Below, piece after piece: positions 11,217 through 23,205 of a stretch of 64,000 nucleotides of DNA. This DNA is from Dermanyssus gallinae (lineage: Eukaryota > Arthropoda > Arachnida > Mesostigmata > Dermanyssidae). Position 1 is the first letter of the stretch. Every line of letters begins with the position of its first letter. Under the pieces are notes generated by a model. That model was given only the letters and a program-made list of their open reading frames with translations, had not been told where the DNA came from and did not search any database. The position numbers were made by a program, and so were the translations under genes. The stretch spans positions 124,001 through 188,000 of the forward strand of contig QVRM01002356.1 of NCBI GenBank assembly GCA_003439945.1. Direction: 5' to 3'.

Positions 11217-11337
11217 TTTTATTGAGACATCAGAACTTACGGTGTAGGAGAGGCAATATTCCATACTAACCATTAAATGTGCCAGTGTTATGCCTCGAGT
11301 CTCGTGGGTGGTCCTGGATTTCATTCATCAATCTTGC
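11217..11337 (-). CDS. Gene A, terminal exon and 3' UTR
   Basis: On the minus strand a good acceptor (GTTGGTGTTGTTTCAG) ends at 11338. The exon opens GC AAG ATT GAT GAA TGA, so with the 1 nt left by the upstream exon it encodes GKIDE then stop at 11323-11321. A 3' UTR follows, with AATAAA at 11223-11218 on the minus strand. The exon is outside the tandem duplication, so it serves both exon sets. The phase agrees with all eight micro-exons. The stop four codons in is short but natural for a terminal exon. Expression is not shown by sequence alone. Confidence 0.65.
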
Positions 11338-11689
11338 CTGAAACAACACCAACATATATAATTTATTCTTTGTTCTTGTTTAGTGCTCATTATAGAGACT
11401 GGTTCTGTCACCAGATTTGGTAAGGAGCGTTTTGTATTTTCTAAAGGCCATTGACCAAAGAGCGCTGTCGAAGTGCAATGCATCGCACTCTGCAACGCAG
11501 CAGGAAAGACAGAACTTCATCATACGAAGTTCGCATGCGTTATTTGAGACGGAACTTGTTCGTAGTATAGAAAAAGATTTACGCGTGTTTGACTGCATGG
11601 CACTGGCACGTTAAGCATTCCTCGATCATGCAGAGACGCGAGAAAATATTTTAAGAAACTGAACTGTATTAACCAGAAAAAATACGTAC

Positions 11690-11725
11690 CACAATGTACT
11701 GGTACACATAACTTAACCCGCCCCT
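11690..11725 (-). CDS. Gene A micro-exon E4, copy A (36 nt)
   Basis: Minus strand: acceptor ATTATATTTCAG, exon AG GGG CGG ... TGT G, donor GTACGT. Phase 1 at both ends; with the G from the upstream exon it encodes EGRVKLCVPVHC. It brings two of the few cysteines of the protein (C-x3-x-C form, CVPVHC), perhaps a small disulfide loop. The copy at 17309-17344 has D-I in place of K-L. The intron downstream leads to the terminal exon. Confidence 0.7.
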
Positions 11726-11758
11726 CTGAAATATAATGACAAATGTCGTCATTAGCCT

Positions 11759-11795
11759 TTATATATATATATATATATATATATATATATATATA
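11759..11795. repeat. (TA)n tract
   Basis: Pure TA run next to micro-exon E4A, in the intron. The matching tract in unit B (17379-17521) is about 140 bp, so length changed after the duplication. Confidence 0.95.
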
Positions 11796-12124
11796 AAACT
11801 ACTGGCAGCCAACGACGATGACAAAACAGTACTAACAACTATGTCAACAAACAATAACAGCAAATAGTTCAAACTAACTATCATCAATAGTTAAGATTTT
11901 TTCTCTTTCACTATCTTTCTACAGCTACATATACGCGGCAAAAAACATGTTCGATAATGTCAATGACAGATTTTTGGACGTCACTTGATCATGCGTAAAC
12001 GTAAAAAACAAAATGTCTGAAGTTTTGCCAAAAACAACTCGTTACTGCCGCAATATTCTATTTTTTTTTTATTTGACAATCAATGAACTTACGCTAAACT
12101 GATTGAACTAGAAAAATGTCATAC

Positions 12125-12157
12125 CTTGAGGTGTTGTTGGAACAGCCCCCTTCAGCT
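12125..12157 (-). CDS. Gene A micro-exon E3, copy A (33 nt)
   Basis: Minus strand: acceptor TTATAATATTGCAG, exon AG CTG AAG GGG ... CAA G, donor GTATGA. Phase 1 at both ends; encodes ELKGAVPTTPQ with the borrowed G. Identical in sequence to the copy at 17848-17880. The peptide is Pro/Thr-rich and resembles E2 (xxKGxxVPx), which supports origin of the exons from one another. Confidence 0.7.
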
Positions 12158-12817
12158 CTGCAATATTATAACAAATACTGTTACTATTCGGTTTTTGTTT
12201 TTATTTTTTATAAACGAGTCAGTGTAAATTGTATTCAGCTCTCTTTAGCAGTTGGGAAAAATAGTTGGTTTTAAGGTTTCCGGGAACAAGATGTCAAGCA
12301 ACACCGTACTAGACACAGTTGTGCATAAAAATGTCGCTGCGTACATTCTCTAGCAAGATACAAAACAGACAGCCAAAATAAAATCGACTGCCGCCCTTGA
12401 GTTAAGTCTCGTATTCTTACACGAGAGCCTCGTAACATATATACATATGTACTTGGCGAATCTTTTTCCAATACCTTACCAGGTTATTGGAGGACGGCAG
12501 TGGACAAGTTTTGTATTCAAATCTTTTTGTACTATTCCAAATTAAGAGCAAATAATTTTTGTAAGAAGTGGGCATGCAAAACCCGCTGTAGTCTTCGAAC
12601 GATTGTCCTATAACTATAATGACGGCAGAAAATATGGTCGACAATGTCCACGCCGCATGTTTAGATATCCATTAATAATGCGTAAACGCGCAAAGGAATA
12701 ACATTTTAAACAAACTTTGTTAAAAACAACCTGTTATTGTAACAATATCCTACTGATTTCATTTGACCGTCAATGTGGTGAACACTAAAAACTGATTGAA
12801 CCGGAAGAAGGACATAC

Positions 12818-20245: not shown

Positions 20246-20351
20246 ATATATATTAATATATATATATATATATATATATATATATATATATATATATATA
20301 TATATATATATATAATATATATATATATATATATATATATATATATATATT
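20246..20351. repeat. (TA)n tract
   Basis: About 100 bp of TA with small interruptions, between the LINE-A and LINE-D fragments; only 24 bp long in unit A. Confidence 0.95.
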
Positions 20352-20943
20352 AAAAACAATGACCCCGAGCACACTCTCTTAAAATGCAAGGGACTAGAGC
20401 AGGCAAGGACAATTGCCATAGCGCTGCTACGATTAAAATGGGCCAGAGAAGCAGGAAAACAAGGAGTCGGGATACCAGACCCGCCGAGAAGTAACATGAG
20501 AATGCGGAGTTTGCATGTTTGCGGAGTACATATGCAGCACAGCATCGGCATGGAGGCTGGGTGAGAAAATGCGGTGGTGAAAAAGAAAGCGGAGCTTGGC
20601 AGATACAGAAGAGAACGGACAGCGCTTACGACATTAACAGATGACGTGGCTTGTAAGCAAACGGGTTCGCAGGTGTTGGGACAAGCACGTCGGACTGGTG
20701 GGGGAACTCGTGAGTCCCCTCGGCCAAATGATCCGTTAGACGCTCGCTACTTTTCCTAATGGCCCATAGTACTGTTCTATGGATGTCTGGGTCATTAGAG
20801 AGTGGAGCTTAAGGGGGAAGGTGTGTTTAGTGGTCTTGGCGGACCAACATCCAACTGCTAGGATCGAGCCCCAAACTGTTCGAGAGAGTAATTACTCCGT
20901 ACTCGCGTGCATGAAAACATTCATTCTCCTCAAACAAAAAAAA
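20352..20943 (+). pseudogene. LINE-D 3' end with poly(A), unit B
   Basis: Copy of 14505-15095 with a 13-bp duplication-like insertion around 20503 (ATGCGGAGTTTGC) and an A-rich end before a short TA run. Confidence 0.65.
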
Positions 20944-21322
20944 AATATATATATATTTAAAAGTACTAATGGCAATAAAAAACAGTACTATGACAACAAC
21001 TAATAACAGCAAATAACTCATACTTAAGCTCATCGATAGTTAAGATATTTTTCTCTAATTCTTCATATATATATATTCGAATTGGCAGCAAAGAAGTTAC
21101 TCGAAGTAGACTTGTACGACCCGATAAACGACTTTAAACGATCTTTCTATAACTAAAGTTTTAGCAGAAAATATGTTTAAAAGCCAACGCCGCACGTTTA
21201 AGCACCCGCTTGTGTTATGAGTAAACGCAAAAAAAAAAATAAACTTTGCCAAAAACAACTCATTATTGCCACAATATCCTATGATTAAGTTGATAATAAA
21301 CATGCTGTGAAACAGGACATAC

Positions 21323-21364
21323 CCCCAGGCACTTCTTTAATTGTTTCCAAATTGTTCGATGGTT
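21323..21364 (-). CDS. Gene A micro-exon E1, copy B (42 nt)
   Basis: First micro-exon in the transcript after the signal-peptide exon. Acceptor GATCATATTTCAG, donor GTATGT, phase 1 at both ends; encodes EPSNNLETIKEVPG. ATT GTG in unit A is AAT TTG here. Confidence 0.7.
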
Positions 21365-21624
21365 CTGAAATATGATCACAGCAAATATCATCATTAGTCT
21401 GTCGTTGGTATAAAGGAGTCTGTTAAATTTTCTTAGACTTTTTGCAATGTTGAGTTGCTGACACGGATTTAAGTTAAGGTTTTAGGGTTTCCGGGAACGA
21501 ACGATACGTCAAGCGAGAACGCGTACTAAACATTGTTGTGTAAAAAGGATGTCGCTACGTACAACTGAAACAAAATCGACTGCCGGCTTCGAGTCTTGTA
21601 TAACTCCCATAGCTGATATATATA

Positions 21625-22919
21625 CAGGTAGTTCAACAAGTTCTGAAAATATAAAACCAAGCATTTTTCATCCAAATCTGTTTTTAATTTTTTCTTATTC
21701 GATATACTCCCCGAGAAGCTCAATACACTTTTCCCACCGAGATTTCAGAGCATTTATACCTCTTGAGTAGAATTCCGCGTCTTTAAACTTAAGATAAGCA
21801 TTGGCAGCAGCCTTAACCTCTTCATTGTTGGAAAAACGCTTTCCACCGAGACTATTCTTCAAATGTCCGAAGAGGAAATAATCAGAGGGAGCCAGGTCTG
21901 GAGAATAGGAAGGTTGTTCGATAAGTTTGAACCTCAGTTGGGCCAGTTTTGCCGATGCTTCCCGCGACTTGTGTGCAGGAGCATTGTCCTGGTAAAACAG
22001 GACAATCTTCTTCTGCAAAGCGGGCCGTTTCACGATGAGCTCTTGCTTCAGGCAGTCCAACAGTCTTGCATAATATTCTCCCGTGATCGTTTTACCGCTC
22101 TCAAGATACTCGGCCAAAATTATTCCACGTTGGTCCCAAAAAACCGTAGCCATCATCTTTCCGGCCGATGCCGTTGACCGCACCCTCTTCGGAGGTCCTT
22201 CACCAGGTGCACACCATTGGCGAGATGCTTCTTGGGTCTCGGGAGTGTAGTGATTGACCCAGCTTTCATCGACTGTCACGAATCTGCGCCAAAAATCCGA
22301 CGGATTTTTCGACATCTTGGCCAAATTTCGCTGTGAAGCGGAAACTCGCGCATCTTTTTGGCCTTGGTTGAGCAAATACGGCACCCATTTTGCTCTGAAC
22401 TTTTTCATCTTCAAGTTCTTGTGCAGGATGAAATGCACACTACCCAAATTGATCCCCAAGGCCTCCGCTATCTCTCTAATGTTCACTTGCTTATCTGCGG
22501 CAATGATATTCCGCATTTTTCCACCTTTTTTTTCATCGGTTGCCGTTTTTGGGCGTCCTGAACGTGGCTCATCCTCGGTGCTTCTGCGACCTCTTTTTAA
22601 CTTATTAATCCAGTTGGAAACAGTGGCAAAACATGGCGCAGAGTCACCGTACACCTAGTCTAACTCAGTTTTCACTTGGGTCGCATTCCAACCTTTGAAA
22701 TAAAAAATGCTTGATAACCACTCGAAACTCTTTTTCTCCATTTTTCAAAATCACGCCGATACGTTGCACGGGAAAGCGATCAAACGAAATAGCAGCAGTC
22801 TTTTCGTCCAATCACCATAATATTTTGACTACTAGCAGTCGAAAAGTTGCCGTTTCCAATAGCGAAAAATTCGAATTCTGAAAAGCTTATTTTAAGAACC
22901 TGTTGAGCTACCTGTTTAT
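21625..22919 (-). mobile_element. Mariner, unit B copy
   Basis: Same element as 15817-17112, with a longer transposase frame (22654-21695, 319 codons): helix-turn-helix part FATVSNWINKLKRGRRS, linker SGRPKTATDEK, then VTVDESW, FYQDNAPAHKS and SPDLAPSDYF as the D, D, D(34) residues. The ATG expected near 22743 is cut off by TAG just upstream of VYGDSAPCF, so the intact protein cannot be made. Lies between gene A exon 1 and E1B. Confidence 0.9.
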
Positions 22920-23081
22920 AAACCAGTCGACGAGCAGATCTTGAATAGTATGGACAGAGAGATACATCTGTTTATTCATGAGGTGAATGAGTTCTGACTA
23001 GAGTGCTAAATTTAGAAAAAAGCTTTACACAGATCCTTTGCCTATCGATTGCTTGCCTGGTGCCTATCTACGTACACTTAC

Positions 23082-23205
23082 CAGTGGGAGCCGATGAAGC
23101 GAGAACCGCCAGCATCGTTACCATCATGATCATCAAGAAGACGAAACGCTTTGCTTCCATTTTGACCGAAAGTGATGTTGAAGCAATATTCCGCACTATC
23201 AGATC
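23082..23205 (-). CDS. Gene A exon 1: signal peptide
   Basis: ATG at 23160-23158 starts a 26-residue secretion signal: MEAKRF, a hydrophobic core (VFLMIMMVTMLAVLA) and a small-residue cleavage region SSAPT. The exon ends after one extra nt (ACT G) at a strong donor GTAAGTGT, so phase 1, matching all downstream exons. Upstream, CGTACTGTTGCAG just before 23205 looks like an acceptor, so a separate 5' UTR exon is possible; otherwise transcription starts near the TA tract at 23220-23249. Predicted product with all exons: 123 residues, secreted. Unrecognised; name withheld. Confidence 0.72.

What the first reader, a model, noticed from the sequence alone, without database searches (positions are those of the whole stretch)
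11217..23205. A secreted protein gene built almost wholly of micro-exons
Seen: a signal-peptide exon and a terminal exon on the minus strand, with eight exons of 42, 27, 33, 36, 42, 27, 33, 36 nt between them. Each has a canonical AG acceptor and GT donor, phase 1 on both sides, and no stop. The predicted 123-residue protein has two 46-residue repeats. Known: schistosome micro-exon genes (MEGs) and aphid bicycle genes have the same plan (signal peptide, many tiny symmetric exons) and serve as secreted, variable effectors. Inference: this is a gene of that kind. Such exons are too short for ORF callers.
Basis: partly seen in the sequence, partly recalled or inferred. Interest (0 to 1): 0.92.

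Follow-up and report, generated by a model that had tools for sequence, protein, structure and literature searches.

The report
Secreted-protein gene of tiny exons
A gene for a small secreted protein appears to be assembled from eight tiny exons that arose by copying one exon-plus-intron unit, and the exons have changed much more than the introns around them, as in some genes that parasites use to change what they show their hosts; no RNA evidence was available.

Summary
On the minus strand a signal-peptide exon and eight symmetric phase-1 micro-exons (42, 27, 33, 36 nt, twice) are present, with fair to good splice sites. A scan for open phase-1 micro-exons returns exactly these eight in the 11.8 kb (chance mean 0.35; the two halves are copies, so four are independent), also at looser cut-offs. 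The signal-peptide exon is the only one found in the window by a crude rule.

New here: the gene grew in two steps. First, a ~0.7 kb exon+intron unit was copied to give exons A, B, C and probably D; introns are still 66-71% alike. Later a 5.6-5.8 kb block with a mariner element at its edge was duplicated (98% alike). Exons are the most diverged part: anchored at splice sites, introns are 79% and 72% alike, exon interiors 33-36%.

No relative was found by sequence. The structure passes the aphid bicycle-gene classifier (0.98; cut-off 0.72), but there is no CYC motif. Expression, species and function are unproven. The tandem block could be an assembly artefact.

The parts
23082..23160 (-). signal-peptide exon, ATG to donor (79 nt, 26 codons + 1 base); the exon may begin at 23205, after an AG in the 5' UTR
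   Evidence: donor score 10.8; only hit of a crude signal-peptide-plus-donor rule in both strands of the window; 23205 read
21323..21364 (-). micro-exon A1, 42 nt, phase 1-1
18543..18569 (-). micro-exon B1, 27 nt, phase 1-1
17848..17880 (-). micro-exon C1, 33 nt, phase 1-1
17309..17344 (-). micro-exon D1, 36 nt, phase 1-1
15518..15559 (-). micro-exon A2, 42 nt
12818..12844 (-). micro-exon B2, 27 nt
12125..12157 (-). micro-exon C2, 33 nt
11690..11725 (-). micro-exon D2, 36 nt
11380..11489 (-). preferred terminal coding exon (36 codons + TAA); AATAAA at 11367-11362 begins 12 nt after the stop
   Evidence: (acceptor 6.2); begins with a Glu codon like the eight internal exons
   Evidence: acceptor score 8.7
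17118..22923 (-). block 1 (exons A1-D1 with mariner and LINE-like insertions)
11498..17117 (-). block 2, tandem copy of block 1, about 98% identical outside AT runs
21076..21563 (-). older exon+intron unit around A1
18261..18767 (-). older exon+intron unit around B1
17640..18069 (-). older exon+intron unit around C1

Best explanation
This is a host gene, most likely of an arthropod, for a small secreted, probably little-structured protein (about 154 residues). Read from the sequence: one ancestral phase-1 exon with its intron (~0.7 kb) was copied in tandem into A, B, C and probably D; the exons then diverged almost to the level of unrelated sequence while splice sites, phase and introns were kept; later the whole A-D cassette was duplicated in tandem, with one breakpoint at the end of a mariner element. 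Inferred: because every micro-exon is a whole number of codons in one phase, exons can be gained, lost or skipped without breaking the frame, so gene and splicing together can vary the secreted product; this variation is what selection favours, as expected for a protein that meets a host, prey, mate or pathogen. The specific target is not known.
For: Exactly eight phase-1 micro-exons on the minus strand of the span at three sets of cut-offs. One phase common to all four exon types and to the signal-peptide exon. Block-1 unit flanks 67-71% identical, exons 39-44%; windows as diverged as the exon: 0 of 378 (A1-B1), 13 of 329 (A1-C1), 0 of 360 (B1-C1). Splice-anchored comparison of A1-D1: 62/78 just upstream and 56/78 just downstream without the AG/GT, against 24/72 and 26/72 inside exons (29/72 and 31/72 if the outermost exon bases are counted). 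Exon lengths differ only by multiples of 3, whereas 5 of 34 gaps in the introns are multiples of 3; in a simple neutral simulation all four exons stay spliceable, in frame and open in 0.66% of 20,000 runs (frame alone 30%, open 14%, splice sites 4.5%). All 5 exon base differences between blocks are replacement changes, giving 4 residue differences. One signal-peptide exon of this type in the window.
Against: No transcript evidence. No relative in the protein search. The 5 changes in 138 exon bases are not significantly more than 48 in 2272 intron bases (Fisher p = 0.23), so recent positive selection is not shown. Splice consensus itself raises identity next to the exons. The A-B alignment is misplaced at the donor side, and A-C is less clear-cut (13 of 329; block 2: 23 of 328). 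No selection test on the terminal exon. Cut-offs were set with the exons in view. Region rich in mobile elements, so a decayed gene cannot be excluded.
Confidence: 0.7

Rival explanations
1. The gene is real but has only four micro-exons; the two blocks are the two alleles of one locus laid end to end by the assembler, so the 46-residue repeat is an artefact.
For: Blocks differ by about 2% (104 of 5226 non-exon sites, AT runs left out), the level of ordinary heterozygosity in many arthropods (recalled); one block edge sits at a mobile element, where assemblies often break.
Against: The sequence runs through the junction without N. The break sites share no more than one base in register, which neither helps nor harms. 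Even if true, the A-D exons and the exon-intron contrast stand.
Confidence: 0.2
2. A dead or dying gene: once a micro-exon gene, now not expressed.
For: Mariner and LINE-like pieces and long AT runs in the introns; no purifying selection visible between blocks (5 replacement, 0 silent changes).
Against: No stop, frame change or lost splice site in the ten exons of the preferred model; the four older exons kept frame and splice sites at ~30% intron divergence.
Confidence: 0.1
3. No gene at all: a non-coding tandem repeat of ~0.7 kb that happens to carry splice-like sites.
For: The units are real tandem repeats and the protein has no relative.
Against: A non-coding repeat should not have its most variable stretch cut out between AG and GT, with one common open phase and lengths in multiples of 3, downstream of a signal-peptide exon of matching phase.
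Confidence: 0.05
4. A structural secreted protein (matrix, cuticle, silk or cement) of the elastin or PEVK style, rather than an effector: both are built of small repeated exons in one phase and are rich in V, P, E, K (recalled).
For: Mature part rich in P, E, V, K, T; a Val-Pro pair occurs in each of the four exon types (read).
Against: Structural repeats are normally homogenised (recalled); here exon peptides are nearly unlike one another while introns are alike. Only two cassettes.
Confidence: 0.2

Closest known systems
Schistosome micro-exon genes (MEGs)
   Same: Signal peptide, tiny symmetric exons between longer introns, fast evolution; internal duplication with repeated exon-length pattern is reported for MEG-26 (PMC5825161, passages), and an exon duplication tied to a mobile element for MEG-3 (PMC4350168, passages).
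   Different: Exons here are 27-42 nt (MEG: 6-36 or up to 81, majority 15; PMC5825161, PMC10526429, passages), fewer of them, no sequence relative found, and the named mariner relatives point to an arthropod rather than a flatworm.
Aphid bicycle genes
   Same: Many micro-exons that start at codon position 2, the same phase as here; passes the published structure classifier (0.98 against cut-off 0.72).
   Different: No CYC motif; 8 internal exons against about 17 exons on average; reported from aphids, phylloxerans and scale insects (PMC9168663, passages); window G+C of about 42% is higher than I recall for those insects. Fold not tested.
Hessian fly small secreted salivary gland protein (SSSGP) genes
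   Same: Introns and other non-coding parts conserved, mature-protein coding part highly diverged among tandem copies (PMC2955719, abstract).
   Different: There whole genes are the copies; here the copies are exon+intron units within one gene.

Membership tests
Schistosome MEG | about 80% of the coding part in short symmetric exons of 6-36 bp (PMC5825161; up to 81 bp in PMC10526429) | tested here: inconclusive
   All 8 internal exons symmetric, but 27-42 nt; share 59% (154-residue model) or 74% (123-residue model)
Schistosome MEG | secreted or membrane-anchored product with signal peptide | tested here: met
   crude signal-peptide rule only; no dedicated predictor available
Schistosome MEG | sequence relation to a MEG protein | tested here: not met
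   no protein with E <= 10 among 425 candidates; limited to relatives sharing 5-residue words; no MEG protein was compared directly
Schistosome MEG | platyhelminth host (PMC4350168) | not testable with these tools
   species not named; the mariner relatives that carry an organism name in the 120 rows listed are arthropods, which is only suggestive because mariner moves between species
Schistosome MEG | alternative splicing of micro-exons | not testable with these tools
   no RNA data
Aphid bicycle gene | internal micro-exons starting at codon position 2 | tested here: met
   8 of 8
Aphid bicycle gene | structure classifier above 0.72 | tested here: met
   0.98; 0.91 for a one-block gene, coefficients from PMC9168663; used outside the insects it was trained on
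Aphid bicycle gene | CYC motif(s) | tested here: not met
   none; some bicycle proteins also lack it (PMC13041983, passages)
Aphid bicycle gene | saposin-like helical fold | not tested
Aphid bicycle gene | salivary-gland expression | not testable with these tools
   no RNA data
Hessian fly SSSGP pattern | non-coding parts conserved, mature coding parts diverged | tested here: met
   at the level of exon units

The most novel reading that the evidence does not exclude
A separate origin of the micro-exon secreted-protein plan in an animal line outside flatworms and sap-sucking insects, working as a within-gene diversity maker: exon+intron units are copied, exons are freed to change while introns and splice phase are held, and whole cassettes are then doubled with the help of a transposon.
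Probability: 0.4. Interest if true: 0.8.

Novelty: new variant of a known kind. Interest (0 to 1): 0.62.

Why it matters
Genes of this plan escape ordinary gene finders and similarity searches, so secreted effectors may be missed in many animals. This locus records two layers of duplication in one gene and shows, inside a single sequence, coding pieces that have changed more than the introns beside them. It gives a simple, testable signature (tandem units alike in introns, unlike between AG and GT) that can be used to look for such genes without knowing their proteins.

Tried and rejected
Protein similarity: no relative of the 154-residue model in the large protein collection, Pfam at cut-off (three sub-threshold matches, E 0.21-0.33), solved structures or viral contigs (23 stretches matched a short pattern, none confirmed; exact exon-A2 DNA, 0 matches). 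Rfam: no match in the window. Species: residues 80-480 of the LINE frame at 6813-8543 gave 9 relatives, the best 45% identical, one 91% over 11% of the query, none telling; no confirmed relative in viral or genome contigs. The mariner at 50150-51172 gave 3933 relatives, 120 listed; by my count 114 of the 120 are named Cordylochernes scorpioides (a pseudoscorpion), one a bee (Ptiloglossa), one a beetle (Callosobruchus) and four have no name. An arthropod is likely; the species is not shown.

Selection between blocks: tested, no significant excess of change in exons. Search for further copies of the A, B, C and D units in the window: only the eight places, apart from short matches of A1 to mariner ends. 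Pfam scans of 20 open frames chosen from the window: mobile-element domains in 5 of 10, none in 10 of 10.

Considered and set aside: a multi-copy peptide precursor (no dibasic sites inside the repeats); an N-glycosylated protein (no N-x-S/T site). A shared CTG at the duplication junction, which I first read there, does not hold in register; I raised the odds of the assembly-artefact rival from 0.17 to 0.2 for that reason.

Literature: seven searches, of which I saw the listings; in those listings I saw no micro-exon secreted-gene family of arthropods other than bicycle genes. This says nothing about papers outside the open-licence library or below the listed rows.
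Full report
What is there. A 79-nt coding piece (23160-23082) encodes a signal-peptide-like start and ends at a strong donor in phase 1. Eight exons of 42, 27, 33, 36, 42, 27, 33 and 36 nt follow, each phase 1 on both sides. With an acceptor before 11489 it is 154 residues, the stop ending at 11380. I prefer the second: it begins with a Glu codon like all eight internal exons, is open for 36 codons, and has AATAAA at 11367, 12 nt after the stop, with a GT-rich stretch behind it. 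The first has the better acceptor score (8.7 against 6.2), so this is unsettled.

Is it more than chance. I scanned both strands for open phase-1 exons of 18-60 nt whose splice scores reach the weakest of the eight. Nine are found on the minus strand of 64 kb, eight of them these, and two on the plus strand; Markov sequences of the 11.8 kb span average 0.345, at most 3 in 200. The cut-offs were set after the fact and the weights are generic and recalled. With looser limits the span still yields exactly these eight in phase 1 on the minus strand; other phases give 6 (phase 0) and 4 or 6 (phase 2) there, which I take to be mainly the same exons, since A, B and D are open in phase 0 and B and C in phase 2. 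Because block 2 is a copy of block 1, the independent number is four. Phase 1 is the only phase open in all four exon types, and it is the phase in which the signal-peptide exon ends. A scan for a methionine start, a basic residue, a hydrophobic core and a phase-1 donor found one site in the whole window, this one; that rule too was set with the exon in view.

How the gene was built. Two layers of duplication are visible. The younger layer: 22923-17118 and 17117-11498 are tandem copies, differing at 48 of 2272 intron, 27 of 1228 mariner, 29 of 1726 LINE-like and 5 of 138 exon positions, AT runs left out. One edge lies about 9 bases before the end of a mariner element, the other 8 nt before the preferred terminal exon; the two break sites share no more than one base in register. 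All five exon changes are replacement changes, but the rate does not differ significantly from introns (p = 0.23), so recent selection is not shown. The older layer: the surroundings of A, B and C are alike over some 430-540 nt, and D shares the bases next to its splice sites (12-14 of the last 15 and 10-11 of the first 15 intron bases). B1 and C1 acceptors are 689 nt apart, which I take as the unit length.

The telling contrast. Outside the exons the block-1 units are 67% (A1-B1), 69% (A1-C1) and 71% (B1-C1) identical; inside, 43, 39 and 44%. Sliding windows as diverged as the exon number 0 of 378, 13 of 329 and 0 of 360. The block-2 pairs give 66, 68 and 70% outside, 43, 45 and 44% inside, and 0 of 381, 23 of 328 and 0 of 355 windows. 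The A-B alignment is misplaced at the donor, so I repeated the comparison without an aligner, anchored at the splice sites of A1-D1: 62 of 78 just before the AG, 24 of 72 in the first exon bases (first two left out; 29 of 72 with them), 26 of 72 in the last (last one left out; 31 of 72 with it), 56 of 78 just after the GT. Splice consensus explains part of the high values next to the sites but not the 66-71% over hundreds of bases. Exon lengths differ by multiples of 3, while 5 of 34 intron gaps do; in a simple neutral simulation all four exons keep splice sites, frame and an open reading in 0.66% of 20,000 runs, though frame alone is kept in 30%. The simplest reading is that these are true coding exons, freed or driven to change, while introns were kept alike, perhaps by gene conversion. 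The Hessian fly SSSGP genes show the same contrast between whole genes (PMC2955719, abstract).

What it may do. The mature part is rich in Pro, Glu, Val, Lys and Thr, acidic to neutral, with a Cys-x4-Cys in each cassette and one Cys in the preferred last exon. It has no relative by sequence. I infer a secreted protein with little fixed structure whose exons can be added, lost or skipped without breaking the frame. A role towards a host, prey, mate or pathogen is the best guess; a structural secreted protein is the main functional rival.

Membership. The plan is that of MEGs and bicycle genes. By the published coefficients the bicycle classifier gives 0.98, and bicycle exons also begin at codon position 2. 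But there is no CYC motif, no sequence relative, fewer exons, and the species is unknown. The classifier rewards exactly this architecture, so it cannot tell shared descent from convergence. I do not file it in either family; I say it is built, and probably works, like them.

Limits. The doubling could be an assembly artefact; the four-exon gene and the exon-intron contrast would stand.

Noticed in passing
50147-51172 (-): Nearly full-length open mariner transposase; many of the 120 listed relatives are over 90% identical, 114 of the 120 being named from a pseudoscorpion, with single ones from a bee and a beetle: a sign of movement between arthropods.
   Followed up: partly
about 21625-22914 and 15818-17108 (-): A second mariner type sits at the start of both blocks (ends read by eye), one copy open for 319 residues, the other for 278.
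   Followed up: partly
5475-9733 (+): Frames of a LINE in several pieces; 6813-8543 matches endonuclease and reverse transcriptase models, with 9 relatives in the protein search.
   Followed up: partly
2757-3440 (+): A further piece of a reverse transcriptase.
   Followed up: no
13130-14403, 19047-20169 and 58023-58466 (+): Frames that look like the C-terminal part of a LINE protein (recalled); the first two lie inside the gene's introns, one per block. Those at 13130 and 58023 were scanned and have no Pfam match.
   Followed up: no
54985-55542 (+): N-terminal part of a Tc3-like transposase.
   Followed up: no
33850-34400: Long repeats open on both strands as runs of Asn and Ile and of Val.
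   Followed up: no
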